Shown: piece by piece, positions 1,278-61,968 of the stretch
How positions within the stretch are numbered: position 1 is the stretch's first letter
How the letters are laid out: every line of letters begins with the position of its first letter
NCBI GenBank assembly: GCA_016187935.1
Contig: JACPIU010000014.1
Coordinates: 124,001 to 188,000 of the forward strand
Direction of reading: 5' to 3'
Length of the DNA stretch: 64,000 bases
Source of the DNA: Bdellovibrio sp.
Lineage (GTDB): Bacteria > Bdellovibrionota > Bacteriovoracia > Bacteriovoracales > Bacteriovoracaceae
Notes under the pieces: generated by a model
Told to the model about the DNA's origin: nothing
The model's input: only the letters and a program-made list of their open reading frames with translations
The model's database searches: none
Translations under genes and position numbers: made by a program

Positions 1278-1300
1278 CAGGTCTTGAAAAAAATCTGTTA

Positions 1301-5388: not shown

Positions 5389-5409
5389 CACCAAACGTAG
5401 AAATAAATA

Positions 5410-6180: not shown

Positions 6181-6190
6181 ATATCGGCTC

Positions 6191-9073: not shown

Positions 9074-9175
9074 ATGATGACGCCAGAGAAGTTTATCTCG
9101 TCGGCAAGATTGGCACATTGGTTGCAATACCAATATATGTGTGTGTGGGAGGAAAGAAGAAAGGATTTTTTCTGA
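9074..9175 (+). CDS. Possible 33-residue small ORF in the sdhC-glpD gap
   Basis: The only clear structure in the 480-base gap between sdhC and glpD. ATG ATG at 9074 opens a 33-codon frame (MMTPEKFISSARLAHW..., rich in Trp, Tyr and Arg) ending at 9175, and a strong terminator hairpin follows 20 bases later. There is no good ribosome binding site and no convincing sigma70 promoter. The unit could equally be a small non-coding RNA that ends at the same terminator. A short bulged hairpin lies upstream at 8986-9003 (GACGCC / GGCGTGTC). Confidence 0.25.
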   Translation: MMTPEKFISSARLAHWLQYQYMCVWEERRKDFF

Positions 9176-42989: not shown

Positions 42990-43562
42990 TTAAGGAAGAT
43001 TTTTAGGAAGAATGAGGCGTCGTCTTGAGACCAGTGCGGCAATAAAAAGTGTTAAAGGAAGAATACTGATTGCCCCTACGATGCCAATGGTTGAGAGCAA
43101 GTGTGAATTGGAATTTGCCGCCATTGTTTGAGGAGATGGCGGAACTTCGAAAGGAACATCAAAAGAAAGGGATTTATCGCCTTCTATCGAAACATTCAGA
43201 TGATAGGTTTGGTCTGGAAGAAGTTGGAGCTGAAGAATGTAAAGAAATCTTTCATCAGTATAGTTCCGGGTGATCTTTTGAATCTCACCCGTGGGAGTTT
43301 TAATTTTGAAATATAACTTCCCTTGATAATGGGTATCACTATTTAAATCGTAGAGGTAAAGATAAATATCGACAGTCGTCAGCGACCCAATGGACCGATA
43401 CAAGGTATATCCCAATTCGAAATTTTTATTAAAATACACCATGGGTGACGTTGGATCGTCTTGGCGTTGGACATAATGCAGGGGCATGGAATGATCGGCA
43501 TAGCAAAATCCCGCTATCAACAATACTCCTGCAATGAAAAGAGCAAGACCAAAAGTTTTCAT
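42990..43562 (-). CDS. DHSM-family membrane-anchored protein 1
   Basis: 190 residues. A signal peptide ends in FCYA, directly before DHSMPLHYVQRQD, the conserved start of this protein type, shared with the protein at 51366-51947 (DHSMLLHYVGRLD). A periplasmic domain of about 130 residues, rich in beta-strand patterns, is followed by a C-terminal transmembrane helix (VGAISILPLTLFIAALVS) and a short basic tail. It is predicted to be anchored with the domain outside the cytoplasm. It overlaps the upstream propeller gene by ATGA, so the pair is translated together. Function unknown; partner of the propeller lipoprotein. Confidence 0.75.
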   Translation of the reverse strand: MKTFGLALFIAGVLLIAGFCYADHSMPLHYVQRQDDPTSPMVYFNKNFELGYTLYRSIGSLTTVDIYLYLYDLNSDTHYQGKLYFKIKTPTGEIQKITRNYTDERFLYILQLQLLPDQTYHLNVSIEGDKSLSFDVPFEVPPSPQTMAANSNSHLLSTIGIVGAISILPLTLFIAALVSRRRLILPKNLP

Positions 43563-46978: not shown

Positions 46979-47008
46979 ATTATTTCCCCCTACATTTCCA
47001 TTCTGAAA

Positions 47009-47024
47009 TGCAGAGATGATGCCA
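47009..47024 (-). promoter_or_regulatory. Sigma54 -24/-12 promoter of propeller operon 1
   Basis: On the minus strand TGGCATCATCTCTGCA: the GG and GC invariant dinucleotides are ten bases apart, with 4 of 5 bases of TTGCA. It is 31 bases before the ATG, giving a leader of about 20 bases with GGGGGA as ribosome binding site. One of four strong matches in the minus-strand accessory region. Confidence 0.65.
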
Positions 47025-47183
47025 AAACTATATCTTTGATTTTTCTAAGATTTCAAAACGACGAGTCAAATATGTGTAAGGAAATCAAGACTGTGTCAGG
47101 TTAGGTTGACCATTGAAATGAAATTACTTGGGCGAAGGTCAGGAGCATGGTAGTGCCTGTACTGATTAGGCGATTAGGATACC

Positions 47184-49907
47184 TCACTGCTTCTTACAGT
47201 TTATGTTAGTCTTCAGCATCCTAAAATGTTGTTTCCAATCGGGTTCGAGAATTTCCGTGGTAGTCTGGGGTGAAATTTGAAAATTGACAGTTGCAAGCGT
47301 CATAAGTTCATAAAAGATAAAAAATAAACATTCTACATCATACTGAGGAAGTGAGTCATTACCCATTATTTGAGTGAGGATGAAATTCCCAATAGGTGAA
47401 ACTGTAACACCATTAGATCTAATCATAATGTCGCGTAGGTTTAAGATAGTCTGATACGATGCTTGGGAATTTCCGGGGATAATTAGTCGTGCCCAAGCGG
47501 GGCCTAAATAATTTGCAAATTCAATCTCACGTTTTTCGGAATAGACTTTAATAGGGATAAACAGTAAGTCTTCGCGCTGAAGTAAGGTATCTTTAGGAAG
47601 GGTATCAGAGGTAACACTGAACCTGATGGGATCATTCACTTTTTGGGGATGACGTTTAATGCAAACTTTCGTTTCTTGAATCTGTGAAGCTGGTTCGTTC
47701 AAGTGTTGCATAAGACAGGGGAGTTCATAGTCCTTAAGATTGAGAGAACGATTAAACAGAGTCGTCTTTGAATTTATCTGAGTGTTTGTTCTCCCTTCAG
47801 AGGATCGAAGATTGATTAATCCGCTTGAAACGAGAGTGTCATTGTAGGTAATTTCTACAATTCCAAAATCGAGGTCTTCTGGCAAAATGGTATAGAAGCG
47901 CAAAGGAAACTGTTTTTGGTCATTGGAAATTGTAAAATCGAGATCAGGAGTCAATTCAAGAGGTGGTGAATTTGAGTTTTCTGCCTTGAGAGGAAAGTAA
48001 AAATTATCCTCACGCAAGATTCTTAGCTTGATAGAAGAACCTGCAGGAAGTTTGAGCTGGTCGACCTCAAGTGAAAGGGTAATGGGAATCATTTTTGTAT
48101 TTCTTTCGTTGGGCATAAGCTGACAAGGTGGGGCGGTGGAAAAAATATGGGTGTTGGCCGTGATTTCTTCCTTAAGAACATTTGGGGGAGTGGACCAAGG
48201 ATGTTGGCCATACTTCTGTTTGAGAGTTTCAGTTAAGAAAAGATAGGGATTGACAATGCAACGGAATGAAAAAAAATCTGATTTATTCTGCTTTAGCACA
48301 AAATTAGCAAGCAGGGTTGTTGCAGCATTGATTGACACAACTTTCTCATCACTTAAGATGGCCATGTTGGCCATTCCTCTGGCCAACACGTTGCTTTCGC
48401 CTGAACTGCTTTGGATCAAGCTCAGTATGAATGGAGAAGGTCTCTTGGAACGAAATAAGATTGGAATCTTGGCGCCTGTTAAATTTTCCGCTTTAAGTTC
48501 TACTTGGGCACTATATTCAGCATGATCACCCCCCGGGCGTGTTAGCGCAATTTCAACGGGGTAATCCAGGGGGCCATCGATCTTTAAAAAAAGGTTTTGC
48601 TTGTTTTTGGCAAAGTCTAAATTTATGACAGCTTCAACTGTTATATAGGTTTCTTGCGCAGTTGATGTATTTTCAGATGCAAGCTGAGTAGGTGCCATCA
48701 TTGGCGTGGGAATCGGCGAAGTAGGAATTGGAGTTGCAATCTTCAGATTCGTCACTATTTGAGTTTCATCTGACTGCGGGTGAACAATTGCGCTCTTGGC
48801 CTCATTTTGACCTCGGGTGAAATGACGGAGATACTTTATTGAGACGATACTGATCAATGCAATAACAAGAAGAAAAGGAAAGATCGGAAGTGATTTTTTT
48901 TGTTGTGGTGGTTTATTTTCTTCTTGTGGCGTTAGGATGACATTTTTTTCACTAGATTGATCGACCTTTTCAATCATGGTTAGAAATGTTTCGGCGGACT
49001 TCGGACGTCTATCGATCATTTTTTCCAGAGACTTGCTGACAAGGGAATACAAAGATCTGGCCTTTTCGGTTTGGGGAAGGTCATCAAAACGCAGAAATCC
49101 CTGATCTGTTCTTGTATTCAGTAATTCGGTACGATTCTTTGCCTTGGGTGGTTTTCGATGCGTAAGCATCTCGTACATAATGAGGCCCAGCGAATAGAGA
49201 TCAGACCTTCCATCAAGTTGAAATCCCAAAATTTGCTCCGGCGACATATAAGTCGGAGTTCCCACGACAAAGCCTGTGCCGGTTAGGTCCGAATCTTCTT
49301 TTTTGTCGAAAATATTTTTTGCAATCCCAAAGTCGAGAACCTTTACAAAATCTTTTTCGCCAAAGTCTTCCGTGAGCATGATGTTACTGGATTTTAAATC
49401 ACGATGAATAATGCCATGCTCGTGCGCTTCGCGCAGTGATCTGAGAATTTGTTTTGTGATTGCAGAAACCTCGTCGATGGTAAACTTTCGACCTGCTTTT
49501 ACATAATCACGGATTGTTTTGCCTTGAATGTACTCCATGGCCATGAAGAGGGCACCGGATTCGGTTTCCCCATAATCATAAAGTTTAACAGTGTTAGGGT
49601 GCTGTAGCTGACCAACGGTCATGGCCTCTCGTTGGAAGCGAATGAGGTCATTTTCGGCCTGGGGCCTATCCGATAATAAGATCTTAACTGCCACGTCGCG
49701 GCCGACAGAGATCTGTTTGGCCAGATAGACTTTTCCCATCCCCCCTTCACCAATCAGTTTCTCAATTTGATAGCGATTTACAAACACTTGCCCGATAAGA
49801 GGGTCGGCAATTTTCAGCTTGAAATTCTTTTTTTCGCTGGTTTGAAAACCATCAATAGGGCAAATTTCCTGATCTGTTTCTTTTAGGCAGTTGGGGCAGA
49901 TGCGCAT
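47184..49907 (-). CDS. Transmembrane Ser/Thr protein kinase with zinc ribbon
   Basis: 907 residues. Starts with a zinc-ribbon-like CPNC...CPIDG, then a Hanks-type kinase at about 46-310: GEGGMGKVYLA, VAVKILL, HRDLKSSNIM and LDFGIAK are intact, so it should be active. A transmembrane helix at about 343-362 (FPFLLVIALISIVSIKYL) leads to about 540 extracytoplasmic residues with no known domain (candidate sensor). Ends in a few cysteines. The start overlaps the stop of the downstream part of the sigma54 activator (TAATG), so it is translated with it. This is the classic kinase plus FHA arrangement in which the kinase phosphorylates or binds the FHA protein. Confidence 0.9.
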   Translation of the reverse strand: MRICPNCLKETDQEICPIDGFQTSEKKNFKLKIADPLIGQVFVNRYQIEKLIGEGGMGKVYLAKQISVGRDVAVKILLSDRPQAENDLIRFQREAMTVGQLQHPNTVKLYDYGETESGALFMAMEYIQGKTIRDYVKAGRKFTIDEVSAITKQILRSLREAHEHGIIHRDLKSSNIMLTEDFGEKDFVKVLDFGIAKNIFDKKEDSDLTGTGFVVGTPTYMSPEQILGFQLDGRSDLYSLGLIMYEMLTHRKPPKAKNRTELLNTRTDQGFLRFDDLPQTEKARSLYSLVSKSLEKMIDRRPKSAETFLTMIEKVDQSSEKNVILTPQEENKPPQQKKSLPIFPFLLVIALISIVSIKYLRHFTRGQNEAKSAIVHPQSDETQIVTNLKIATPIPTSPIPTPMMAPTQLASENTSTAQETYITVEAVINLDFAKNKQNLFLKIDGPLDYPVEIALTRPGGDHAEYSAQVELKAENLTGAKIPILFRSKRPSPFILSLIQSSSGESNVLARGMANMAILSDEKVVSINAATTLLANFVLKQNKSDFFSFRCIVNPYLFLTETLKQKYGQHPWSTPPNVLKEEITANTHIFSTAPPCQLMPNERNTKMIPITLSLEVDQLKLPAGSSIKLRILREDNFYFPLKAENSNSPPLELTPDLDFTISNDQKQFPLRFYTILPEDLDFGIVEITYNDTLVSSGLINLRSSEGRTNTQINSKTTLFNRSLNLKDYELPCLMQHLNEPASQIQETKVCIKRHPQKVNDPIRFSVTSDTLPKDTLLQREDLLFIPIKVYSEKREIEFANYLGPAWARLIIPGNSQASYQTILNLRDIMIRSNGVTVSPIGNFILTQIMGNDSLPQYDVECLFFIFYELMTLATVNFQISPQTTTEILEPDWKQHFRMLKTNINCKKQ

Positions 49908-50128
49908 TACTCGATTCCGTATTTTTTCATTTTTTCATAGAAAGCAGCACGACTTATGCCGAGAAGCTCCGCTGCTTTTTTTTTGTTGCCGCCTGCTTTG
50001 ACGATGGCGTCGCGAATATGGGCCGAGATTTTTTCTTTTTCAAACTCATTGATTGAGAGAAAAGACTCACCATTTGCAGTACTGCTTGACGGTGAATTTT
50101 CAGTTAAATTTAAATCAGCAATTAACAT
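49907..50128 (-). CDS. Fis-type DNA-binding end of the sigma54 activator (frame break)
   Basis: 73 residues in a frame that overlaps the end of the gene at 50115-51164 by 14 bases. The C-terminal HTH (GGNKKKAAELLGISRAAFYEKMKKYG) is that of NtrC-type activators, which recognise enhancer sites. The two frames differ by +1 at an A5 run; removing one A would give one protein of about 420 residues with a normal RELK-... transition. Reported as a separate ORF because that is how the sequence stands. Either a real decay, an assembly error, or a coupled reinitiation giving a separate DNA-binding module. Confidence 0.75.
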   Translation of the reverse strand: MLIADLNLTENSPSSSTANGESFLSINEFEKEKISAHIRDAIVKAGGNKKKAAELLGISRAAFYEKMKKYGIE

Positions 50129-51164
50129 TTTTCAATTCGCGAATATTGCCGGGCCATGTATGATGATTCAAGCACTCCATCGCCTCGGGAGAGATGGTAA
50201 AAGGTTTTTTTCCCATATCGATGGAGAGGACGTTTAAATAATGCTTAACTAAAATTGGAATGTCTTGTTTACGCTCTTTGAGTGATGGTACTTTGAAGTG
50301 AATGACTTTGAGACGATGTAGAAGATCTTTTCTGAACCCATCATTCTCTGCCAGTGTGGAAAGATTTTTATGAGAAGCTGCCAGCACGCGAACATTGACA
50401 CTTACTTCATGCTCGCCCCCAAGACGTCGAATCTGCTTAGATTCGAGGACCCGTAATAGTTTGGTTTGTGCCGACAAAGGTAAGTCACCAATTTCGTCAA
50501 GGAAAAGAGTTCCGCCACTGGCATCTTCAAAATGTCCGATGTGCCTTTTCTCTGCCCCTGTGAATGCACCTTTTTCATGTCCGAAAAGCTCACTCTCGAT
50601 TAGGTTATCGGGGATTGCCCCACAATTGATGGCGATGAAGCGTTTGTCGCATCGAGCGCTGAGAGTATGAATCGCTCGTGCGATAATTTCTTTTCCTGTG
50701 CCAGTGTCACCTTCGAGTAAAACAGTGCAGTCAAGTGGTGCTACCTTGTTGATGAATTCAATCACACCTTCTGTCAGCTTGGAGGTTCCCAAAATGCTGG
50801 CCCTGGGATCAAACGGAACTGTTAAGGTTTCAGAGTTTTTTTTCTTTTTTGTTTCCTCATTTGCGTCCTTTCGCTCGACGACTTGTATCTCAACTTTTCC
50901 TATAACAATTTTGTCCCTGGGAATAACTTCTGTGGGACGACTGATCGGTAGGCCATTGATAAAGGTTCCATTGGTGCTGCCTAAATCCTTGATCCACCAT
51001 TTGTCATTTTCAAGATAAACCTCGGCATGGCGAGAAGAAATCCCTGGATCAGACAAATGCAGCGAAAGTGATTTTTCACTCCCGATGACATATTTCGCCT
51101 CACTGCTTTTTAAAAGAAAGCAGGTTCCCTCAATACGGCCTTTTGAAATAAATAATCCAATCAT
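50115..51164 (-). CDS. FHA-domain sigma54 activator (NtrC-type AAA+)
   Basis: 349 residues. An FHA domain at about 20-95 (YVIGSEKSLSL, GISSRHAEVYLE, DLGSTNGTFING) binds phosphothreonine. The AAA+ domain of sigma54-dependent activators follows at about 130-345: GDTGTGKEI (Walker A), GHEKGAFTGAEK (the GAFTGA loop that contacts sigma54), GGTLFLDEIGDLP (Walker B) and WPGNIRELKNV. The ORF ends directly after this motif, with the Fis HTH in another frame (49907-50128). FHA-sigma54 activators are common in deltaproteobacteria and respond to Ser/Thr kinases, here the next gene. It is the likely controller of the sigma54 promoters at 47009, 55565, 56182 and 61914. Confidence 0.9.
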   Translation of the reverse strand: MIGLFISKGRIEGTCFLLKSSEAKYVIGSEKSLSLHLSDPGISSRHAEVYLENDKWWIKDLGSTNGTFINGLPISRPTEVIPRDKIVIGKVEIQVVERKDANEETKKKKNSETLTVPFDPRASILGTSKLTEGVIEFINKVAPLDCTVLLEGDTGTGKEIIARAIHTLSARCDKRFIAINCGAIPDNLIESELFGHEKGAFTGAEKRHIGHFEDASGGTLFLDEIGDLPLSAQTKLLRVLESKQIRRLGGEHEVSVNVRVLAASHKNLSTLAENDGFRKDLLHRLKVIHFKVPSLKERKQDIPILVKHYLNVLSIDMGKKPFTISPEAMECLNHHTWPGNIRELKNVNC

Positions 51165-51234
51165 AGCTATGGATTATTATTACATAAAATAATATTTTGT
51201 TCCTCAGGTTATACTTTGCACCTTTAAATTCTGA

Positions 51235-51369
51235 TTATTCTGGTCGGTTAACAGTTTTTTGTGCAGACATGTTCTTCTTAAAGCGACTGATACGTTGTTG
51301 TATCTCGGGATCAATCCGCTGGACAGAATCAGTTTTATGGGGCTGATTCAGATAATCAAAGGCCTTCAA
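51235..51369 (-). CDS. 44-residue ORF coupled to DHSM protein 2
   Basis: Begins with a TTG that overlaps the stop of the preceding gene (TTGA), a coupling like ATGA. The encoded residues (KAFDYLNQPHKTDSVQRIDP, then EIQQRISRFKKNMS) look protein-like and helical, with no signal peptide. The ribosome binding site is weak. It fills most of the gap to the sigma54 activator gene. Cassette 1 has no clear counterpart. Confidence 0.4.
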   Translation of the reverse strand: MKAFDYLNQPHKTDSVQRIDPEIQQRISRFKKNMSAQKTVNRPE

Positions 51370-51947
51370 GACGACAGGCCACGGGAGTGCTTCCTTTGTT
51401 TAAAATAAACATAAGAAAAAAGAACCAAAAGACAGGTCCCCAAGCTCAGCAATATGGCGTAATCGCGTCTGTGTTGTTTGGACTGGGCAAGTGGCAGTTT
51501 CTGCTCAAAGAACATGTCAATTTGATGGTTCGAAGCTTCTAAAAGTCTTGCTCTTAATAAATACTGGCCACTGGCTTCAATGAAGGGCCGTAGCAGATAG
51601 AGATCACCTTCGTCGGTCTTTTCTCTAGCAAAAGTTGCGATTAGCCGTTGATAGTCCCGACCTCCGTAAAGTCTGAACTCAACGGGGCCCAAATAAGCAT
51701 CGGCAATCACAAGGTCGTAAAGGTAGACATAGAAGTCTTTGTTTGGAGAGCTTGGCTTTGGTCTCTGGAATTTAGTGGGGTAGCTAGTCATCCCCATTTC
51801 AAAACGAGCATCCATGGTGACAAAGGGAGCGTCGGCACCATCCAGCCTACCAACGTAATGTAAGAGCATAGAATGATCGGACCATGCCGTTTGCATTAGC
51901 ATTATCGATAGCCAGCCAAACAGTACAATGGGCCATTCATGTCTCAT
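51366..51947 (-). CDS. DHSM-family membrane-anchored protein 2
   Basis: 193 residues, paralogue of the protein at 42990-43562. A signal peptide ends in QTAWS, before DHSMLLHYVGRLDGADAPF. A shared central pattern (FYVYLYDL versus IYLYLYDL; LYLLRPF versus LYILQLQ) follows, then a C-terminal transmembrane helix (ILLSLGTCLLVLFSYVYF) and a basic tail. It overlaps the propeller gene by ATGA and is probably exported and anchored as in cassette 1. Confidence 0.75.
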   Translation of the reverse strand: MRHEWPIVLFGWLSIMLMQTAWSDHSMLLHYVGRLDGADAPFVTMDARFEMGMTSYPTKFQRPKPSSPNKDFYVYLYDLVIADAYLGPVEFRLYGGRDYQRLIATFAREKTDEGDLYLLRPFIEASGQYLLRARLLEASNHQIDMFFEQKLPLAQSKQHRRDYAILLSLGTCLLVLFSYVYFKQRKHSRGLSS

Positions 51948-54900
51948 TTATCTTCCTTCTCATAGTACTGGCGCTGGACTAGATTCGTAAATTCTTGTTC
52001 ATTCTCAAGCAGCGGATCAAAGGATGGGAAAAGTGAGCTGATACTCTGGAGCATCGGCTCTACCCACTTCTCCATGAACCCGAAGTCAACAAAATCACAG
52101 TTAGTACATTCCTTAACATTAAGCTCGTTTCTAAAGATGCCCCGACCGCAGGTAGTCGCCAGCAGATAGCTTCCATTGGGAGCTATGGCCATACGATATG
52201 GATAGCTATGGGACATAATCGGAAGATATCCCTCCTGGGCCCAGCGAAAATTTTTGCCACCATCATGGGTCACAAGAACACCTGGATCGTGCAATCCAAA
52301 GAAAACCCTTTCAGGAAAATTCGGATCAATGACCATAGAATCCACTCCACCACCGAAGCCGATATTCCTATAGGCGACATCATGACTATAGGCCATTGAT
52401 TGATCCTTGACAGGACTATTGTTTCCATCGAGCAGTCTTGTCCAGACCTTTCCGCCGTTAATGGATTTCCACAGGGCATTTCCTTTGGCGTCTTTACTGT
52501 TGGCGTAGTGTGCTGCCGTTCCTGCATATATTACCAATTTATCGAGATTAATGGTTTTATCGGACTGGTTGAAACCGCTGGTGGGGTCTACCGCCATGGC
52601 CTGTACGATACGACCGTAGGCATTCCAGTTCCCCTTTTCATCTTGTTCCTCATTTGGCCAAATGCAATCAGGAGTTCCGTCAGCTTTGAAGGTACAAGGA
52701 CCATTTGCGGAGTTAAAGTTTCGCCCCCCATCTGTGCTGATGTAGACCCCATTGCCTAGAGTCGAGATTACTACAAGATTAGAATTTGCCGGGTGGATGT
52801 TTATGGTGGAGACGGCCCTCAAAGGAACGGACGCAATCCAGGTCCAGCTTGCACCAGCATCTTCACTTAGCCAAAGGCCCGTCCCCCAACATCTTTCATG
52901 AGTGCTCATTTTGCCAGCGATGATGGCCTTGGCAAGCTCGTAATTGGGATTAGAAATGTCGTTTCCATCGATAATCTGCTTCGCGGCCTTGTAGATGTTA
53001 TCTGGAGCGCGCCACCAGCAGGCATTCTGTGGCCCTTCTCCGGCACCGACGAACACCCTATTGGAAGCTTTCGGATCCACTGCAATTGTGTTGATTGATG
53101 ACCAGAACTGATTTTTTAGAATGGATGACCAGGTCTGGCCTCCATCAGTCGACTTTTTTAAGATTGTCGTATTATTCATCCCGCCACCAGCATAGATAAC
53201 TTGATTGGTGTTGGAGGGCATGGCCAAAGCATTATAGCGACCGTACTCGCCAAGAGACTTCCAGGTGATGCCAGCATTGTCTGACCTGTAAATCCCGCCT
53301 TCCGCTGCGGCAAAGGCCAAGTTAGAATCGTACCCGGAGATGGTGACGGCACGAACAGAGCTGACTTTGTTGCCGAGGTTTTTAGACTGAAAAGATGCGC
53401 CAGCGTCATTGGAAACCTGCATGCCCAAAGCTAAGCTTGAGCCATAGATATAGCTTGGATTGGCCTTTGAAAGGTCTCCGTTTAAAAGATTGTGCCCATC
53501 TCCTACCTTACGCCAATTGTAGATCCCGTCGCCTTCCCAGACCGCCTTTTGAGCGATGACTACAACTCGCGAAGGTTTGGTGGAATGGTCTATACGAACG
53601 TTCATAGGCGTTGTACCTTGAAAGAGATTGGGAATAAGGCCGCCGGTACCATTAAGTTGCACCCATTTTTTGGACTTACCATCATTTGGGAGCACATAAA
53701 GTATGCCTTTGAGCGAAAGGGCAATCACTAGATCCTCGGAGTTCCACTGGGGTAGATTGAAAGCTGTGAGATTTTGATCACCAAGAACAAGAAAAGGATC
53801 GGTTTCTTCGAATGTAGACCCTTGCTCAAGCACGGTGAGATCTTGACTATCAAGAAGGTGTGATTCTTCTAAAATAAATTCTTCCGACGAAGTGTCTGCT
53901 ATTTCGACCTCAGAATTTGCTGTTTCGGCAGCAAAAACATCAGTAACCGCAAAAACCTGCACTGGCCCTAAGGTCGGATTCCCCTTTCTAAAGACGATCT
54001 CCTTGATCTCCACGGGACTTTCAATATACATATCATCTTTCAGGTATCCAGTATAAAGATTTTCGCTAAACTCCTGCCACGATTGGCCTCCATCGATACT
54101 TCTTATAATGGGAAAAGCAATTTTACCGTTGGCGTTCCAATCGGCGAAATCCATGGAGGCGGCCATGATTTGCCGATATCCATTGATGGTTTTTGTGTCA
54201 TCAATGGCAATGTCACGCATGAGCCCACCTCCTGTATAGATGGTGGAGAAGGATTTGCTTGTCTCGTTGTAGACAGTACGCTTGACCAAGCTCCCATCGT
54301 TCCGATGGAGCTTTCCTTTGGAGATGGGAGTCATACTCTCTCCCCCATCAAAGGATTCAAAAACACCGTCACCGGTAACGGAAAAGAATACATGTTTCCA
54401 ATTGGATGGATCAACTGCCAGCGCCCATCCTTCCCCTCCGCGATTTATCTCTCCGGCGGCCGTCCATTGCCAGGTCTTCCCACTGTCCTCACTGCGCCAG
54501 TAGCTTGAGATATGCTTGGCTGCAGTGCCAACATAGAGCACGTTATGGTTATTAGGCGCCACCTTGATCGACCTGATACGAATCTTTGAAAGACCATTTG
54601 GAATTCCAATCTCCTGCCAGGTATTACCGTAGTCTTCGGTGTGGTAGACACCGCCATCGGCCCCTCCCATATACGCAACGTTTTCTTTGGATGGATGAGC
54701 AGTGACCGTTCGAACCATGCCGCCGTAAAGCTGGGCCTGTTTCCATGTCTGGGAAAAGTCGACTTTTGATGTGATCTTTAAGTTATCAAGATACAGCTCG
54801 CCCTGATGAACACCAAACCTAACATCTCCAAAAAATGACTTTCCATTGGTATCGAGATGGTCAAATAGCAACGTGTTGTCTATTAGCGCTTTGATGCGAA

Positions 54901-55528: not shown

Positions 55529-55564
55529 AATTGTTCCCCTGGTAGCGTCCTTTCCCCCTAATAT

Positions 55565-55580
55565 AGCAATACTTATGCCA
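55565..55580 (-). promoter_or_regulatory. Sigma54 -24/-12 promoter of propeller operon 2
   Basis: TGGCATAAGTATTGCT on the minus strand, an almost perfect match to TGGCAY-N5-TTGCW with GG-N10-GC. It is 37 bases before the ATG, and AGGGGAA near the start is the ribosome binding site. Confidence 0.75.
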
Positions 55581-55739
55581 GATCATCGGCGCTTAAATCG
55601 TGGAAACTCTATAAAGAAGGGAATGGCCATGATCGAAAAGGCAGATAGGGTGTTTGGAAGACCGGACTGGCCAGAGATCTGTCCTAATTCTAGGGACACC
55701 GATATTTGCCGGCACTCGCGGCTTTGGAAAGAAATGAGA

Positions 55740-55761
55740 AAAGGGCCCGTCAGGGCCCTTT
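55740..55761 (-). terminator. Rho-independent terminator after the Cys-rich gene
   Basis: AAAGGGCCC (55740-55748) pairs with GGGCCCTTT (55753-55761) around a four-base loop. The minus strand continues with TTTTC, so it ends transcription of the Cys-rich gene and insulates the next operon. Confidence 0.8.
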
Positions 55762-55791
55762 AAGATGAGAAGCTGGCAGATCAAGCGGGAT

Positions 55792-56139
55792 CTATGGTTT
55801 ATAGGGGGGATAGGGATTGCAGACACAGCTGGCGTTGTTATCGGGATCACACAAGAGGCCATAGGAACACACACACTTACAGCCCTTGCCGGTATCGGGA
55901 TCACATGCCGGAACCTGATTTTCAGGACAGCGAAGACGTAGTTCTTCTGCTGAAACAATCTGGAAACAGATACCAAGATCGTTAGAGTAAACCCGATTGT
56001 CACCGCAATTACGCTTGAGTTGCACCTCATGGGCATATGAGACGAGTGGCTCATGGACCGGGTTCAGTATCAATAAAGATGCTGAAAAAGCGCTGTTCAA
56101 AAATGTCAGAAGAAGTACAACCAAAATTAATCCTTTCAT
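55792..56139 (-). CDS. Small secreted cysteine-rich protein
   Basis: 115 residues with a signal peptide (GLILVVLLLTFLNSAFSA), then about 95 residues containing ten cysteines. Two CDPD-x-C-x-C-type units (ACDPDTGKGCKCVC, LCDPDNNASCVC) suggest a disulfide-rich or metal-binding repeat. The frame is open to 56205, but GGGAGAG before ATG 56139 fixes the start. A strong sigma54 promoter lies 43 bases upstream and a terminator just after the end, so it is a single-gene unit of the sigma54 regulon. Confidence 0.7.
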   Translation of the reverse strand: MKGLILVVLLLTFLNSAFSASLLILNPVHEPLVSYAHEVQLKRNCGDNRVYSNDLGICFQIVSAEELRLRCPENQVPACDPDTGKGCKCVCSYGLLCDPDNNASCVCNPYPPYKP

Positions 56140-56181
56140 AACTCTCTCCCTTGTGTAGGTTGTTGTGATGTCTTTGGGTAT

Positions 56182-56197
56182 TGCAACCGATATGCCA
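56182..56197 (-). promoter_or_regulatory. Sigma54 -24/-12 promoter of the Cys-rich gene
   Basis: TGGCATATCGGTTGCA on the minus strand matches TGGCA-N6-TTGCA exactly at the invariant positions, GG-N10-GC. It is 43 bases before the ATG. Confidence 0.75.
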
Positions 56198-56238
56198 AAT
56201 AGCAATCGTACTCAAGTAGGCGAAATAGAGGGCATAAC

Positions 56239-56511
56239 TTGAAAGAAAAAGATGTTCATGTCTGGTTTTGCGGACGTGCCTCAGATAGTTCGGGCATTTG
56301 GTATTTAAATGTTAAAAACATTGCGAGCGTAACATGGAAAAAATCTACAAGCCAGTCGGCGCCAGAGGCCCATTTGCCCAGAAACTGGGTCGTTTTTGCA
56401 CAACGAGGGACCGCCCTAAGCAAGGCGACCTTGATCAAACAAGACCCTATAAAAGGCGTTCCGGCAGCGGATTTTGCCGTGGAATTACCGGTTTTGGATC
56501 TGGTACGGTAA
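56239..56511 (+). CDS. Hypothetical protein fragment, frame-broken
   Basis: 90 residues from a TTG at 56239 with AGAGGG upstream. The second half of the sequence continues naturally in another frame (56500-56624, GSHALIQFETAAGETFCLNE), so one gene of about 125 residues is probably interrupted by the loss of one base at the AAAA of GGTAAAAGG. No family recognised and no signal peptide. The region is transcribed divergently from the Cys-rich gene, with the start only about 100 bases from that gene's. Confidence 0.4.
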   Translation: MKEKDVHVWFCGRASDSSGIWYLNVKNIASVTWKKSTSQSAPEAHLPRNWVVFAQRGTALSKATLIKQDPIKGVPAADFAVELPVLDLVR

Positions 56512-56624
56512 AAGGTTCACACGCCCTGATCCAGTTTGAAACCGCCGCCGGGGAAACTTTTTGCCTTAACGAAGGATTGATCAAGCACCGCCCAACCTAC
56601 TTTAAAGGCCCTTGTGCAAAATAA
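56500..56624 (+). pseudogene. C-terminal remainder of the frame-broken gene
   Basis: The last 38 codons of the frame that begins at 56334 read HALIQFETAAGETFCLNEGLI, then KHRPTYFKGPCAK. This continues the preceding ORF by sense and position rather than forming a separate gene, since the ATG at 56334 lies inside that ORF. A -1 (or +2) shift near 56510 would join them. Confidence 0.4.
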
Positions 56625-56715
56625 TTCTTTAGAAGGCGCATAAAAAATACACTCCATATTCACACGATGGCCGCATTATTATATGGTCTGGCATCTAAAA
56701 ATTGGAGATGAGACC

Positions 56716-57246
56716 GTGAATAAATTGCATGCAGCTTTGGTCGTTTTGGTTTTAATCATAAGCACTAAGTCCTTTGCGCTCAATTTGGAATATTTGCCAG
56801 GACCATCAGGGGAAACCCTATTTTCACGGCCAGTTTTTAAAAACAGTGACACTGAAATTGTCTATAAGCAAAGATACACCGTAACCAGGGATGATTTGTC
56901 GTTCAGGGCATTCCCCATCTCTATCATGGTAAGGACTCCTCAATACAGAACAACTCTCTGCTCAAGCTATTATGATTGCCCCATCCCTGAGTTGGCGCCC
57001 TTTAATTTCAACCTGAAATTTAAGCTGGGAAGCAAGCCTGAAAAAAATGAGGCCGTGACCATCAATGTGACCACTCTTCATCAACCTAATTCAGAGATGC
57101 CCTATGTGGATGTCTCGGCAGTAAGCAGCAACGACGCCAGAAAATACAAAGTGGAGCTTAAAACCAAGTCAACCTATGAGTGGCAGGGACTTTATTTGGT
57201 GGTTGGCCCTTTGAAAAATTATTTTCTGGTCTCACGGCTTAAATAA
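56716..57246 (+). CDS. Secreted hypothetical protein, 176 residues
   Basis: GTG at 56716 follows GGAG (56704-56707) by eight bases and gives the signal peptide NKLHAALVVLVLIISTKSFA; the frame is also open to an earlier ATG at 56683, which lacks such a signal. The mature 155 residues are beta-rich (NLKFKLGS, AVTINVTTLH) with a cysteine pair CSSYYDCPIP. No family recognised. It is on the plus strand, unlike the sigma54-controlled genes, and I see no sigma54 motif before it. Confidence 0.6.
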   Translation: MNKLHAALVVLVLIISTKSFALNLEYLPGPSGETLFSRPVFKNSDTEIVYKQRYTVTRDDLSFRAFPISIMVRTPQYRTTLCSSYYDCPIPELAPFNFNLKFKLGSKPEKNEAVTINVTTLHQPNSEMPYVDVSAVSSNDARKYKVELKTKSTYEWQGLYLVVGPLKNYFLVSRLK

Positions 57247-57449
57247 TTCCGGACGGCCGAGGCCGGCCATGCTTTAGGTCTTGATGACGAGTACGGCGGC
57301 GATGAAAGAGAATTATATAATGTGTGGTGATAACGATTCAGTCCGAAGCATTTACAATTTAATCGCAGTTTTCCTTTATATTTTGAAATAACCCTGGAAA
57401 CAGTCGGGTGTCCATTCATATTAGTCAGGATTGGTGGCATGACATGTTT

Positions 57450-58478
57450 TTACATCAACCATCTTTTTTTTATGAGGTGATAGGAACAGAAAAAGGTGAA
57501 GAGACCAGATAATAGTAGGGACAACCATTCGTAGGAAAGGTTAGATATTTTCTCGCCGTCGAGCAAGATTGCGCTAACTGGTTTATAAAACTGATAAGAA
57601 GTTAAAAAAGGAGCGATCGCCGTCAGTTTGGTAGAGAAATCTGATAGGGCCGACGGAAGAATATTTGGCAGATAAAAAATAACACCTAAGGTCCTTGCAC
57701 TTGCTTGATTGCGACATAAAAAACCCAAAAGGATTCCGTATGAGGAAAAGCAGAAACTGCCGAGGCCAAGATACACAGCATAACTTGCGATATTTTCAAC
57801 TTCAAATTGGCCAAGAAGGTGGAGAAAAATGACCGCAGCGATAATTGAGATCATCCCAAAAAATAATTTTGCAAAAAGCCAGTCAATTTCGCGAATAGGA
57901 GTTTGTAATAGAGCAAGCAGTAGTTTCTTTTCTTTTTCTTCGGCAACCTGCGCCGGTATGATGATAAAACTTATCAACAAAACCAACATGAGAACCCAGG
58001 TAGGTAAACTCTTTTTTTGAATTTCACTTTCCTGAAGTGGTTTAACATCAGAGATCCAGCTTAACCGCCTGCCTTCGTTTGCTTGTTGCACTGTGGAGAG
58101 GGCCTCTACGATTGAGAGAGTTATGCGAGAATCTTTTCTTAAGACGACAAGACATAAGCTATCTTGATTTTTTTCGGATCTTATTAATAGGCCATCAATT
58201 TTCTTCTCTTTTAACCAACGCTTACCTTCTTCCGCATTCGACAATGAGGAAATGGAAAACAGCGCGCTCTCGGCCTTAATAGTTCGCAGTATAACGGGAT
58301 TATATATTTCTGTCTGGATAAGTCCGATGCGCAGCTTTTGGAAGCTAACCGTTTGTGGGTCTATCAGCTTCAAGGATGTAAAAACAAATAAAGGTATAAA
58401 AATAATGAGATACATTGTCTTGTTCTTGAAGGCCGTGGCCAAATCATGCAACGTTAATGTCACAATTTTTCTTATCAT
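57450..58478 (-). CDS. ABC-2 type transporter permease
   Basis: 342 residues. One helix near the N-terminus (MYLIIFIPLFVFTSLKLI), an extracytoplasmic loop of about 130 residues, then five helices (LVLLISFIIIPAQVAEEKEKKLL..., ILLGFLCR, WLSLLLSGLFTFFCSYHL), the NatB/ABC-2 layout. It exports an unknown substrate with the ATPase next door, with which it overlaps by four bases. Its last residues are near the 57.3 kb gap, where no gene is seen. Confidence 0.85.
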   Translation of the reverse strand: MIRKIVTLTLHDLATAFKNKTMYLIIFIPLFVFTSLKLIDPQTVSFQKLRIGLIQTEIYNPVILRTIKAESALFSISSLSNAEEGKRWLKEKKIDGLLIRSEKNQDSLCLVVLRKDSRITLSIVEALSTVQQANEGRRLSWISDVKPLQESEIQKKSLPTWVLMLVLLISFIIIPAQVAEEKEKKLLLALLQTPIREIDWLFAKLFFGMISIIAAVIFLHLLGQFEVENIASYAVYLGLGSFCFSSYGILLGFLCRNQASARTLGVIFYLPNILPSALSDFSTKLTAIAPFLTSYQFYKPVSAILLDGEKISNLSYEWLSLLLSGLFTFFCSYHLIKKRWLM

Positions 58479-59170
58479 TGGGTATATAGCTCTTTGTATA
58501 GTTTTTGGTGTGTCTCTGATCGGAAATATTGTTCCGTTGAATCATTGAATACTAAACGTCCCTGATGAAGAATTAAGATGCGTGTGGCGAATTCTCTTAT
58601 CTCTTCCGGCCGATGTGAGGTAAATATGATCGTTTTTTCCTGGGAATGAAAATTATTGAGCAGCTGATATATCCCCTTTGTCATCTCGAAATCTAAACCG
58701 GAGGTAGGTTCATCAAAAAGAAGGATCGGCGGATTTGGCAAAAGTGAGCGGGCGATGCTTACACGTTGCTTTAATCCTTTCGACAAAATCTGTATCTTGT
58801 TTTTCCGAAAAGATAGCAAATCAAATTCGTTCAGCATTTGCTCAATTCGCGAGAAAGGGATTTTAAAGAGGCGCGCAAATAATTTTAAATTGTATTCGAC
58901 TGAGAAAAGATCAAAAAGATTAGGTGTTTCCGGCACAAATCCAATCTTTCTCACTAAAGACATTCTGTCTTTGAGGTTGATTCCGTCTATTAAAACAGTG
59001 CCACTATCGGGAAGAATGCAATTTGCTAATATTTTGAGCAGGGTGGATTTTCCTGCTCCATTGTGCCCGACTATGGCAATCAATTCACCTTTCTTAACCT
59101 CAAAACTAGTTGGAAAAAGCCCTCTTTTTTTATCGTATGCTTTTGTCAGTTCGCGAACTTCAATTTGCAC
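58475..59170 (-). CDS. ABC transporter ATP-binding protein
   Basis: 231 residues with all ABC motifs: VGHNGAGKST (Walker A), LSKGLKQRVSIARSLL (signature LSKG), ILLFDEPTSGLD (Walker B), and TSHRPEEI (H-loop). It has the CcmA/NatA type of ABC-2 exporters and pairs with the permease, whose gene overlaps by four bases. GTG at 59170 lies two bases after the stop of the micro-ORF at 59173-59238, so translation is probably coupled to it. Confidence 0.93.
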   Translation of the reverse strand: MQIEVRELTKAYDKKRGLFPTSFEVKKGELIAIVGHNGAGKSTLLKILANCILPDSGTVLIDGINLKDRMSLVRKIGFVPETPNLFDLFSVEYNLKLFARLFKIPFSRIEQMLNEFDLLSFRKNKIQILSKGLKQRVSIARSLLPNPPILLFDEPTSGLDFEMTKGIYQLLNNFHSQEKTIIFTSHRPEEIREFATRILILHQGRLVFNDSTEQYFRSETHQKLYKELYTQ

Positions 59171-59172
59171 AT

Positions 59173-59238
59173 TTATATTAATCGTATGATAACCAATACT
59201 AAAACAACAACCAGTAAGACTGCGATAATAAATCCCAT
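59173..59238 (-). CDS. 21-residue single transmembrane micro-protein
   Basis: ATG at 59238 with a strong AAGGAG six bases upstream; the whole product is MGFIIAVLLVVVLV plus LVIIRLI, essentially one transmembrane helix. Its stop is two bases before the GTG of the ABC ATPase. The good ribosome binding site and clean hydrophobic composition suggest a translated leader or small membrane subunit of the exporter. Length is too short for homology. Confidence 0.55.
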   Translation of the reverse strand: MGFIIAVLLVVVLVLVIIRLI

Positions 59239-59273
59239 TTTTTGCTCCTTGGTGCTTAAGTTGTAAGCTTTAA

Positions 59274-59471
59274 TTAATTTATCTTTCCGCCCCGTATCAC
59301 ACCAAATGGCCCTACAATGCCTGCAAGCAATCCACCAATCATAAGGTACACCGCCTTATTGGTTGGTGCCCCCGTGAAGAAGCGCGAAACATCAGAACTA
59401 AACGATTCCACCCTGCCTTTTTTAATGTTGTGTTTAGGATATTGAAAAAACCGCAAAATCACGCTGAGCAA
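59274..59471 (-). CDS. Possible small membrane protein, 65 residues
   Basis: Frame from TTG 59471 (or GTG nine bases on). The C-terminal part, VYLMIGGLLAGIVGPFGVI, is a Gly-rich transmembrane segment, and the rest is basic. It lies 36 bases upstream of the micro-ORF and could head the exporter operon. The ribosome binding site is poor. Confidence 0.4.
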   Translation of the reverse strand: MLSVILRFFQYPKHNIKKGRVESFSSDVSRFFTGAPTNKAVYLMIGGLLAGIVGPFGVIRGGKIN

Positions 59472-59643
59472 TGCTTATCTTCTTCGTGATTTAGTTCACC
59501 TATACTTTTTTTAGCTGTCAGCACATCCAAGGCTTTCGGCCACACCCTTCACATCCACCCAGAAAGGCTGAGGTAAATCTGGAAAGTTTTAAGGTCAGAG
59601 GCGATTAAACTCAGCCAGTGTGCATGCTTTCGCCAGGTTCCTT

Positions 59644-60330
59644 CTAAAGAAAAGACTGGATAATTTTTTCCGAAATTGAGGTTTTAAAGGCCACGCCCAT
59701 TTTCATCTTAGTGATGCGAGCGCCGGAACTCATAAATTCAATTTTCTTTAGATATACCACGCGGCCTTCGATGGGGGTTTTGAAGGGAATCTGGCCTAAC
59801 TTGTGGATACAAATCTCTGTCCCCTCAGTAAAAAAAATCTGATCTTTTAAATTGAAATTAAAACATATTCCAGTCGCCGAGATATCATAAAGGTTAAAAA
59901 CAAACTCTTTTTGCAGGTCAGAAGAGGCGTTGATTTTGAGTTCAAGTTTCCCAAGATAGGGTGAGTTAAATCCAAGTTTGACGCGAGGACTGATTCTGTT
60001 TTCAAACATCCTCACTTCTTTGGGGATGTCTATGATAATGCATTTTTTTTCGATTCTGACGCTCTCTCGTTTGAACAGAATGCTTTTTTCGTGACCGCGA
60101 ATATAAACGGCGCGATGGACAAGAAAGTCAAAGCGCTTATGCGGATCATTCCTAATGATCACAAACTTGCCGGTGGTCAGGTCGATGTGGTCGATAATGG
60201 CATTCCTGATAATGCGTCGTTCGCCGAGATTCTGCCACACCAAGATGGGAGATTGATCATGGTACATTTTCCGCAGCGTCGAAATAATTTCTAAGCTGTC
60301 TTTGGTTACACGTAAATTAAAGTTGTGCAT
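59644..60330 (-). CDS. PilZ-domain protein
   Basis: 228 residues. The second half contains PilZ signatures NRISPRVKL (RxxxR) and LYDISATGICF (DxSxxG), the usual cyclic di-GMP binding pair, followed by beta-strand pattern to FKTSISEKIIQSFL. The N-terminal 110 residues are unassigned, resembling the YcgR-type N domain. The frame is open to 60378, but AGGGGGA before ATG 60330 fixes the start. A possible sigma54 promoter is 32 bases upstream. Likely effector in motility or surface control. Confidence 0.85.
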   Translation of the reverse strand: MHNFNLRVTKDSLEIISTLRKMYHDQSPILVWQNLGERRIIRNAIIDHIDLTTGKFVIIRNDPHKRFDFLVHRAVYIRGHEKSILFKRESVRIEKKCIIIDIPKEVRMFENRISPRVKLGFNSPYLGKLELKINASSDLQKEFVFNLYDISATGICFNFNLKDQIFFTEGTEICIHKLGQIPFKTPIEGRVVYLKKIEFMSSGARITKMKMGVAFKTSISEKIIQSFL

Positions 60331-60361
60331 AAATCCCCCTTGCAACTCTGCTTGGAAGAGG

Positions 60362-60377
60362 TGCAAAACAGAGACCA
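60362..60377 (-). promoter_or_regulatory. Possible sigma54 promoter before the PilZ gene
   Basis: TGGTCTCTGTTTTGCA on the minus strand: GG-N10-GC is kept and TTGCA is perfect, but the -24 box reads TGGTC instead of TGGCA. Weaker than the other four sites. Confidence 0.4.
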
Positions 60378-60407
60378 ACGCAAAATCCTGTGTTTTCAGG
60401 TTGCTAT

Positions 60408-60467
60408 GGAGTGATGAAGTATGAGCTGTCTTGAATTAGCGACATCGTCGCCAGCTCATAATACTCC
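60408..60467. repeat. Imperfect inverted repeat
   Basis: TATGAGCTG (60420-60428) with CAGCTCATA (60452-60460), flanked by GGAGT and ACTCC at unequal distances. It lies in the gap between the PilZ gene promoter and the TolB-like gene end. No T-run. Could be a weak terminator without T-tail for the TolB-like gene or a regulatory fold. Confidence 0.35.
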
Positions 60468-60541
60468 GAATCGAAGAAGCGCTGCTTGAGGAAGCATGAG
60501 GAGACGGAAGCAAAGATAAGAAGGCGCAATGTCTGAGCTAA

Positions 60542-61885
60542 TTACAGGCAGGTTTTAATCAGGCCACGGTAGGAGAAGTAGGTCGCCTGTACTCCGTTGC
60601 TTTTCAACTGGGTGAGTGGAAGGTTGTTGGTTCCATCAGTTCCGATGGCCCAGATGTTCCAATTTTCGTTTGTCTCTTTGGCCTCTTTTCCATCGAGGGC
60701 GGCATAGCTGCTATAGATGAGAACTCCGTTTTCCTCATTCAGCAGGAAATCATTAACCCAGGCCTTGGAATGCTTCGTGACTGGTATAAGGTCGGTTCCG
60801 TCCCACTTCACGCTCCAAATGTTTCTTGGGTTGGTGTAGCGGTCTTCCCCAGTCAAAGGAAGACTGGCAATGAAAAAAACCCGTTCCCCCTTCTCTTTTA
60901 AGGAAAAACGAGGGGATAACGCCGAGGCATTAATAAACTTTGTTAGAGGGCGATGTACTTTGCCCTCTATGTCGGTTATCCACAAATTATAGACCCAATC
61001 CGCTATTTTGTTGTCGCTTCCGTCTAACCTTCTGTTGGAGATATATATGATTTCTTTTTGATTCGGACCGAATAAGGCCCCAACGGCCTTGGCATTTGTA
61101 AGACTGGTCAGGAGACGTGTCTTTCCAGTGATCTGCGATATCATTATGACGTTAGCATAGCTCCAGGAGGTAGAAGACTCAGACGCCAAGATCCACTCAC
61201 TATTTTGATCGCTAACGTTTGGAGCATTCATGTTTGGGCCGCTTGGCGCGAGAGTTCGAAGTGTTGAGTCGCGGAAATTGAATTCATATGAAGTTATTTT
61301 GCTTTCGTCCGACAGTTGGGTCTGGTTTTCAAAGTCCATGACTCCGTTGAAGAAAAGCCGCTCGTTACTCGATAGAATGAGGTTATAATGCACGTAATCC
61401 CACTCTTCATAAGAGGCTTCTTGTATGTTGGTGATGGGAGCGCTCTTTCCGTCCTTTAAGGAAAGACTCCATAAGTTGAAGATTCCGTCACCTTCCAGTT
61501 TATCTTCTCCGTTTCTTGCGGCCGAGCTAACGAATGCGATTCGATCGCCGACTGGCAATGCTACCGGTGAGGCGAGGACCGAGGGGACACCACCGCTTTT
61601 GTGGCCTAGATTCTCGTAGCGAGTAAGAGGACGCGATTTCCCGTCAAGGCCCACGGCCCAGATATTGTCGCTACCTCCTTGCGAGTCGGTTCCATCCAGG
61701 TGGCGAGAACTTACATAGAGGTATTCTGTGCGACAGGAAGGGACTGAAACTGTTTGTTCCAGGTCGAAAGAAGGTGGAGGCAGAGCAGTGTCTGGTCTTC
61801 CACATGCGCTACAGAAGAGAAGCGCACCCAGTGTCTGCCAGATTGATAGTGCGACGTTAATTTTCCGCGGTATTAAATGGCCCAT
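60542..61885 (-). CDS. TolB-like beta-propeller lipoprotein
   Basis: 447 residues with ATG 61885 after a strong TTGGAGGGAAGC. The signal ends LGALLFCSACGRPD, with a plausible lipidation cysteine. The mature protein consists of TolB/WD40-type repeats: DNIWAVGLDGKSRPLTRY, NLWSLSLKDGKSAPIT, NLWITDIEGKVHRPLTKF, NIWAIGTDGTNNLPLT, i.e. six or so propeller blades with a W-x-x-D-G-K/T motif. TolB-like propellers bind proteins in the periplasm; no enzyme site is visible. A sigma54 promoter lies 29 bases upstream. It is just downstream of propeller 3. Confidence 0.8.
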   Translation of the reverse strand: MGHLIPRKINVALSIWQTLGALLFCSACGRPDTALPPPSFDLEQTVSVPSCRTEYLYVSSRHLDGTDSQGGSDNIWAVGLDGKSRPLTRYENLGHKSGGVPSVLASPVALPVGDRIAFVSSAARNGEDKLEGDGIFNLWSLSLKDGKSAPITNIQEASYEEWDYVHYNLILSSNERLFFNGVMDFENQTQLSDESKITSYEFNFRDSTLRTLAPSGPNMNAPNVSDQNSEWILASESSTSWSYANVIMISQITGKTRLLTSLTNAKAVGALFGPNQKEIIYISNRRLDGSDNKIADWVYNLWITDIEGKVHRPLTKFINASALSPRFSLKEKGERVFFIASLPLTGEDRYTNPRNIWSVKWDGTDLIPVTKHSKAWVNDFLLNEENGVLIYSSYAALDGKEAKETNENWNIWAIGTDGTNNLPLTQLKSNGVQATYFSYRGLIKTCL

Positions 61886-61913
61886 GCTTCCCTCCAAGGT
61901 TATCAACCTGGGT

Positions 61914-61929
61914 TGCAATTCTTATGCCC
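61914..61929 (-). promoter_or_regulatory. Sigma54 -24/-12 promoter of the TolB-like gene
   Basis: GGGCATAAGAATTGCA on the minus strand: GG-N10-GC, perfect TTGCA, one base off in the -24 box (GGGCA). 29 bases before ATG 61885. Confidence 0.65.
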
Positions 61930-61968
61930 GCATTTGGTCCTTATTTTCGGTGGGTTATGGGGGACGGA

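What the first reader, a model, noticed from the sequence alone, without database searches (positions are those of the whole stretch)
46979..61930. A predicted sigma54 regulon of secreted propeller and Cys-rich proteins
Four minus-strand transcription units carry GG-N10-GC sigma54 promoters at 29-43 bases before the start: 47009-47024 (TGGCATCATCTCTGCA, propeller 1), 55565-55580 (TGGCATAAGTATTGCT, propeller 2), 56182-56197 (TGGCATATCGGTTGCA, Cys-rich protein) and 61914-61929 (GGGCATAAGAATTGCA, TolB-like protein). A fifth, weaker one is at 60362 before a PilZ gene. The matching FHA-sigma54 activator is encoded in the middle (50115-51164). The promoters are seen directly; control by this activator is inferred.
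Basis: partly seen in the sequence, partly recalled or inferred. Interest (0 to 1): 0.9.

Follow-up and report, generated by a model that had tools for sequence, protein, structure and literature searches.

The report
Sigma54 circuit controlling surface propeller proteins
A bacterium appears to switch on a set of exported, mostly propeller-shaped proteins through one shared DNA control site, an unusual sigma54 activator and a receptor-like kinase; the activator copy in this window is broken, but an intact twin lies elsewhere in the genome.

Summary
The promoters are real. All five -24/-12 sites lie where stated, 28-42 bases before an ATG. Counting the motif proves nothing: in the window it is at chance, and genome-wide the right spacing is no commoner than wrong ones. 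Position does matter: 8 of 27 rightly spaced hits are in promoter position, against 1 of 60 wrongly spaced ones.

New here: (1) Two further propellers lie outside the finding; 4 of 4 have such promoters. (2) The promoters share an upstream palindrome, TGTC-N10-GACA, exact in 5 of 9; no spaced palindrome exceeded 3 in 1000 regenerated sets. It equals the published site of the sigma54 activator QseF/GlrR and, with one mismatch, precedes an unlinked RCC1-propeller lipoprotein gene. (3) The window's activator has a 41-bp deletion that puts its DNA-binding domain out of frame; an intact 435-aa twin lies on contig C9. (4) Each kinase's outer domain recurs in two lipoproteins with such promoters, and in none of 367 other genomes of the phylum.

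TolB-like membership is not supported. Binding and regulation remain inferred.

The parts
43559..46978 (-). propeller 1, exported, sortilin/Vps10 type, 1139 aa, lipobox-like start
   Evidence: Pfam Sortilin-Vps10 96.5 bits; paralogue of three others
42990..43562 (-). DHSM protein 1, 190 aa, membrane-anchored partner, overlaps the end of propeller 1
   Evidence: alignment A2; no Pfam match
47009..47024 (-). -24/-12 element of propeller 1, 30 bases before ATG
47075..47092 (-). candidate upstream site of propeller 1, AGTCTTGATTTCCTTACA (imperfect; another, GGTCAACCTAACCTGACA, at 47094-47111)
   Evidence: matrix score 9.7, rank 8 of 58; position
47184..49907 (-). receptor-like Ser/Thr kinase, 907 aa, with an outer domain of about 490 aa
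   Evidence: Pfam Pkinase 175 bits; outer domain alignments
50115..51164 (-). FHA-sigma54 activator, truncated: FHA and AAA+ only
   Evidence: Pfam; 41-bp gap against the intact copy
49907..50128 (-). out-of-frame remainder with the Fis-type HTH (73 aa from an ATG that overlaps the end of the first ORF)
51366..51947 (-). DHSM protein 2, 193 aa
51944..55528 (-). propeller 2, exported, 1194 aa, lipobox-like start
   Evidence: Pfam Sortilin-Vps10 102.4 bits
55565..55580 (-). -24/-12 element of propeller 2, 36 bases before ATG
55651..55668 (-). candidate upstream site of propeller 2, AGTCCGGTCTTCCAAACA (imperfect; an N11 variant at 55680-55698)
   Evidence: matrix score 8.4, rank 9 of 58
55792..56139 (-). 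exported Cys-rich protein, 115 aa
   Evidence: no Pfam match
56182..56197 (-). -24/-12 element of the Cys-rich gene, 42 bases before ATG
56259..56276 (-). upstream palindrome, one mismatch, CGTCCGCAAAACCAGACA
   Evidence: matrix score 11.2
59644..60378 (-). PilZ-like gene (ORF from TTG; the ATG used here lies 31 bases after the motif)
   Evidence: motifs by eye; no Pfam match
60362..60377 (-). weak -24/-12 element TGGTCTCTGTTTTGCA
   Evidence: score 12.9
60427..60444 (-). exact upstream palindrome TGTCGCTAATTCAAGACA
60542..61918 (-). TolB-like lipoprotein gene with a -24/-12 element at 61914-61929; membership doubtful
   Evidence: best upstream site scores only 4.5; no Pfam match
62087..64000 (-). 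propeller 3, 3' part in the window; its start, promoter (C48:189393-189408) and exact palindrome lie beyond the right edge
   Evidence: Pfam

Best explanation
A sigma54 regulon driven by an FHA-type enhancer-binding protein. Two paralogous receptor-like Ser/Thr kinases sense something outside the cytoplasm through a domain of about 490 aa and pass the signal to the FHA activator, whose intact copy is on contig C9. The activator binds palindromes like TGTCTTGAATTCAAGACA 56-98 bases upstream of -24/-12 promoters and opens sigma54 polymerase. Output: four large exported sortilin-type propellers with DHSM partners, an RCC1-propeller lipoprotein, two lipoproteins that carry the same domain as the kinase's outer part, a Cys-rich exported protein and a PilZ-like protein. 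On C9 one such promoter stands before the genes for a lipoprotein, the activator and the kinase in a row, so the circuit probably amplifies itself. Shown from sequence: promoter elements, palindromes and their pairing, domain make-up, paralogy, the broken activator. Inferred: signalling from kinase to activator, binding of the palindrome by this activator, co-transcription, and the surface function.
For: 4 of 4 propellers have a -24/-12 element 23-36 bases before the ATG. Rightly spaced motifs are in promoter position in 8 of 27 cases, wrongly spaced in 1 of 60. Palindrome TGTC-N10-GACA exact in 5 of 9 focus promoters; maximum over all arms and gaps in 1000 regenerated sets is 3. In 202 kb, 58 sigma54-like sites: after the 5 training sites the next 4 are the RCC1 gene, Cys-rich, propeller 1 and propeller 2, then a gap. 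None of 46 other exact palindromes has a sigma54-like element above 12.1 in place, the 5 focus sites have 12.9 or more. Paired pattern 10 against 0 for the reversed control. TGTCN10GACA is the published QseF site; three copies precede the E. coli glmY sigma54 element in our scan. Activator, kinase and target genes lie together in both clusters.
Against: No expression or binding data. rpoN was not searched for. The activator in the window lacks its HTH in frame. The counts of either motif alone are chance-like. The palindromes of propellers 1 and 2 are poor, that of the TolB-like gene very poor. HTH similarity to GlrR does not single out the FHA activator: two other activators score 52, this one 50. 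Five of the ten paired hits have weak palindromes or lie inside ORFs. The Arg that FHA domains usually have after the first Gly (recalled) is Ser here, so phosphothreonine binding is unproven.
Confidence: 0.68

Rival explanations
1. The regulon is real but the palindrome is bound by another enhancer-binding protein of the genome, for example a GlrR-like response regulator; the FHA activators next door have other targets.
For: 17 places of the genome match the activator query, most of them over the AAA+ part; HTHs of two other activators score slightly higher against GlrR (52 against 50); an unlinked gene carries the site.
Against: FHA activators lie inside both clusters of target genes; the recognition-helix R-x-x-F-Y of GlrR recurs in the FHA activator and in none of the 6 other HTHs printed.
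Confidence: 0.2
2. The -24/-12 and palindrome matches are coincidence or leftovers of gene duplication, and the genes are transcribed otherwise.
For: Counts of either motif alone are chance-like; the propellers are paralogues and propellers 3 and 4 have similar leader sequences.
Against: Genes of unrelated families share the pair at differing distances, -56 to -98; the position test and the regenerated-sequence test.
Confidence: 0.05
3. In the window the split activator still works as two pieces, the HTH being made from the overlapping ATG, so both clusters are regulated locally.
For: The HTH frame stays open and similar to the intact copy, with an ATG overlapping the end of the first ORF; codon-position differences show past constraint.
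Against: The gap also removes part of the AAA+ lid (lid match 1-52 of 87, 1-73 in the intact copy); a recent break or an assembly fault explains the same data.
Confidence: 0.1

Closest known systems
FHA-domain enhancer-binding proteins of Myxococcus xanthus (Jelsbak et al. 2005; seen only as a reference title in PMC12288465; the paper is not held)
   Same: FHA plus sigma54 AAA+ plus Fis-type HTH architecture
   Different: Here an adjacent receptor-like kinase whose outer domain is shared with lipoproteins, and exported propellers as targets; what is known of the Myxococcus proteins' sites could not be read
GlrR/QseF-glmY of enterobacteria (PMC8745638, passages; E. coli region)
   Same: Upstream site TGTC-N10-GACA with a sigma54 element; 41% identity over AAA+ and HTH
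   Different: GlrR begins with a receiver-like domain (by eye) and lies beside a histidine kinase gene; here FHA and a Ser/Thr kinase; targets unrelated
Sigma54 control of the bacterial exterior (Francke et al. 2011, PMC3162934, passages)
   Same: Sigma54 promoters before genes of the cell exterior, lipoproteins included
   Different: That work is about biosynthesis routes across genomes; the word FHA does not occur in its text
FetP/P19/FtrA periplasmic metal proteins, for the DHSM partner only
   Same: Several of the best fold hits; a DHSM relative lies beside a polyferredoxin and a molybdopterin oxidoreductase
   Different: Weak: E about 0.01, query TM about 0.37, model pLDDT 62; the top hit is an ApaG domain

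Membership tests
sigma54 (-24/-12) promoter | GG and GC elements ten bases apart with TGGCAY-N5-TTGCW surroundings | tested here: met
   Nine focus promoters and the RCC1 gene
sigma54 (-24/-12) promoter | More such motifs than chance genome-wide | tested here: not met
   27 of 140 over five spacings
sigma54 (-24/-12) promoter | Transcription start 12 bases past GC and need for rpoN | not testable with these tools
   No RNA data; rpoN not searched
FHA-type enhancer-binding protein | FHA, sigma54 AAA+ with GAFTGA, Fis-type HTH in one frame | tested here: met
   C9 copy: FHA 62.6, Sigma54_activat 223.3, HTH_8 46.9 bits
FHA-type enhancer-binding protein (window copy) | The same, in one frame | tested here: not met
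   No HTH match; 41-bp gap
FHA-type enhancer-binding protein | Phosphothreonine-dependent control by a kinase | not testable with these tools
   Kinase gene adjacent in both clusters; biochemistry needed
GlrR/QseF system | TGTC-N10-GACA upstream of a sigma54 element | tested here: met
   5 of 9 focus promoters exact; E. coli control
GlrR/QseF system | Receiver domain in the activator and histidine kinase partner | tested here: not met
   FHA at residues 25-89; neighbour is a Pkinase protein
Sortilin/Vps10-type propeller | Pfam PF15902 above its cut-off | tested here: met
   96.5, 102.4, 106 and 116.2 bits against 33

The most novel reading that the evidence does not exclude
A self-referencing surface circuit, known so far only from this genome: two receptor kinases share their outer domain with lipoproteins of the regulon they control, so that each kinase may monitor the assembly or occupancy of its own propeller and lipoprotein layer, and the FHA activator turns this into sigma54 transcription of the whole set, its own genes included.
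Probability: 0.25. Interest if true: 0.75.

Novelty: new variant of a known kind. Interest (0 to 1): 0.55.

Why it matters
It offers a concrete chain (receptor kinase, FHA activator, enhancer site, sigma54 promoters, targets) for a class of activators for which I found no such chain in the papers listed. A 435-aa activator, an 18-bp site and a 16-bp promoter can be tested in a laboratory strain. It also shows a lineage-specific set of sortilin-type propellers under one control, and a kinase outer domain reused in lipoproteins of the regulon.

Tried and rejected
Counting the -24/-12 motif as evidence: rejected, at chance. Counting the palindrome genome-wide: 52 distinct sites, chance-like for 8 fixed bases in 4.4 Mb (28 for the reversed pattern), and in the window 22 hits with up to one mismatch against 19.5 expected; only the pairing is informative. 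Structure of the kinase outer domain: model too poor (pLDDT 50), not searched further. DHSM fold: weak hits only. Footprinting in relatives: not possible; 15 of 79 genomes have some match to the propeller profile, but only this genome has full-length ones, the others reach 34.5 bits at most. Named genomes: 164 loci encode a relative, the best 80 kept, 21-38% identity; near records may be left out there. Chimeric bin as source of the C9 cluster: unlikely, tetranucleotide correlation of C9 36-56 kb with the window halves 0.97-0.98, although C9 66-78 kb gives 0.90-0.91. Allelic copy: unlikely, gene order differs and the kinases are 62% identical. Kinase beside FHA activators elsewhere: 0 of 8 loci by a motif rule, three of them short because the contig ends. 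Terminator- and sigma70-like patterns were at chance. The organism was not identified.
Full report
Setting. The window is bases 124001-188000 of contig C48 in a genome of 4,400,659 bases in 48 contigs, 99.25% complete, 2.9% contamination. The organism could not be named.

Observation. By themselves they prove little: with up to two mismatches there are 72 matches in the window against 67 expected; genome-wide TGGYAYN5TTGCW has 27 hits, while spacings N3-N7 together have 140, so the functional spacing is not over-represented. Position is the informative part. Of the 27, 16 lie outside ORFs and 8 of these stand 8-75 bases before a Shine-Dalgarno and start; of 60 wrongly spaced controls 4 and 1 do (Fisher p = 2.7e-4 for 8 of 27 against 1 of 60). 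Three more of the 27 (propeller 2, propeller 3, a 59-aa exported protein) also precede a good start, but an overlapping ORF kept them out of the count. Five of these eleven belong to the clusters under study. Of the eleven downstream proteins 10 begin like exported proteins or lipoproteins (by eye); the other is a response-regulator type activator.

The genome holds four full-length propellers of one family: two in the finding, a third that starts beyond the window's right edge, a fourth on contig C9. All four match Pfam Sortilin-Vps10 well above its cut-off and carry a -24/-12 element 23-36 bases before the ATG. The C9 cluster has an intact activator (435 aa), a second kinase (913 aa), propeller 4, a DHSM protein overlapping a polyferredoxin-like gene, and two lipoprotein-like proteins (open frames of 521 and 284 aa) with sigma54 elements of their own, 27 and 89 bases before the ATG.

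The activator in the window is broken. Aligned with the C9 copy it lacks 41 bp before the DNA-binding domain, so that the 349-aa ORF ends inside the AAA+ lid and the Fis-type HTH continues out of frame. The shared part is 86% identical and differs mostly at third codon positions (0.098, 0.064 and 0.46 per codon), so the break looks recent; an assembly fault is not excluded. An ATG overlapping the end of the first ORF would allow a separate 73-aa HTH peptide. The intact gene on C9 is the better candidate for the working regulator.

The enhancer site. Upstream of nine focus promoters (propellers 1-4, two lipoproteins, Cys-rich, PilZ-like, TolB-like) the palindrome TGTC-N10-GACA is exact in five, 56-98 bases upstream of the -24 element, and has one mismatch in three more. 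I first saw it by eye. A scan of all 4-bp arms with gaps 2-16 puts it first (5 promoters; next 3), and in 1000 Markov regenerations the best palindrome of any kind reached 3 in 16 runs and never more. A hit with up to one mismatch has a chance of 0.037 per region, so the one-mismatch hits alone are weak. Of ten other sigma54-like promoters tested, one has such a hit: an unlinked gene on C6 for an RCC1-repeat lipoprotein (RCC1 repeats by Pfam). A matrix from the five exact sites (consensus TGTCTTGAATTCAAGACA), run on 58 sigma54-like sites in 202 kb held, ranks after those five: RCC1 (14.7), Cys-rich (11.2), propeller 1 (9.7), propeller 2 (8.4), then a gap to 6.2; the TolB-like gene has 4.5. Since RCC1, Cys-rich and propeller 1 had been seen before as one-mismatch hits, this is a consistency test rather than a blind one. 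Genome-wide there are 52 exact palindromes, a chance-like number; of 46 others examined none has a sigma54-like element above 12.1 in place, against 12.9 or more at the five focus sites. A gapped pattern joining the half-site GACA to the -24/-12 element finds 10 places against 0 for the reversed control; five are propeller 4, both lipoproteins, Cys-rich and RCC1, the other five have weak palindromes or lie inside ORFs.

Independent support. TGTCN10GACA is given as the consensus site of QseF in PMC8745638, with reference to a paper on the sigma54 promoter of glmY (passages only), and a PpsR site has the same form (PMC3949515, passages). That QseF is GlrR is recalled. As a positive control the DNA before E. 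coli glmY shows three exact copies and one sigma54 element. The C9 activator is 41% identical to GlrR over 316 residues of AAA+ and HTH. The HTH does not single it out: two other activators of this genome score 52 against GlrR, the FHA activator 50; only the R-x-x-F-Y of the recognition helix is shared with it and with none of the 6 others printed.

The kinase. Each activator gene is followed at once by a receptor-like Ser/Thr kinase gene (Pkinase in both). The two kinases are 71% identical in the inner and 55% in the outer part. The outer domain recurs in the two C9 lipoproteins, and in the own genome only in these four places; of 368 genomes of the phylum only this one has it at E<=1e-6. One of these lipoprotein genes stands first in the C9 row lipoprotein-activator-kinase, behind an exact palindrome and a sigma54 element, which suggests positive autoregulation.

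Distribution. None of 78 relatives, two of the same genus, has a full-length propeller of this family; named genomes gave only generic propellers at 21-38% identity. Among the matches listed for the C9 activator (the list is cut), those that reach the FHA part lie in other families of the phylum, at 37-44% identity, apart from the two copies here; in eight such loci no kinase gene was seen. DHSM has one relative in 367 other genomes, next to a polyferredoxin and a molybdopterin oxidoreductase (Nap-like by eye); on C9 it also adjoins a polyferredoxin-like gene, whose Pfam score is below the cut-off. Its model is a beta sandwich with a membrane helix; several best hits are FetP/P19-type metal proteins, but weakly. 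A metal-related role of DHSM is a lead, no more.

Verdict. The promoters and the idea of a sigma54 regulon of exported propeller proteins hold and are strengthened by the enhancer site. Corrections: the local activator is broken and the C9 copy is the likely regulator; the PilZ-like gene belongs and the TolB-like gene probably does not; the regulon is larger and reaches at least one unlinked propeller lipoprotein. In kind it is a new variant of FHA-type sigma54 control, within the published theme of sigma54 and the cell exterior (PMC3162934, passages).

Noticed in passing
window 41464-42805, minus strand: A papain-like protease seems split over two overlapping ORFs (41948-42805 and 41464-41961); the second matches Pfam Peptidase_C1, the first has a CWAF-like active-site stretch by eye. 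A second broken gene near the broken activator.
   Followed up: partly
window 38270-40753, minus strand: An exported 827-aa protein made of repeats of about 45 aa (VIDSNDRIGK...FANG...YSYIS) with no Pfam family above its cut-off; no sigma54 element noticed before it.
   Followed up: no
L314 2571-5524 (C6:331571-334524): Unlinked RCC1-propeller lipoprotein of about 970 aa with a perfect -24/-12 element and a one-mismatch palindrome.
   Followed up: yes
L337 (G283:C19) 534-7749: The only DHSM relative outside this genome in 367 others lies in a molybdopterin oxidoreductase cluster with ferredoxin-type proteins, Nap-like by eye.
   Followed up: partly
window 9111-9126, plus strand: A perfect -24/-12 element TGGCACATTGGTTGCA with no ORF of 60 aa or more close behind it and no palindrome; perhaps a small RNA, a short gene or chance.
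   Followed up: partly
C31:1576-1591 (L326): -24/-12 element TGGCACCCGGCCTGCA, one base from that of the 284-aa lipoprotein on C9, before a small exported protein; the palindrome is poor.
   Followed up: partly
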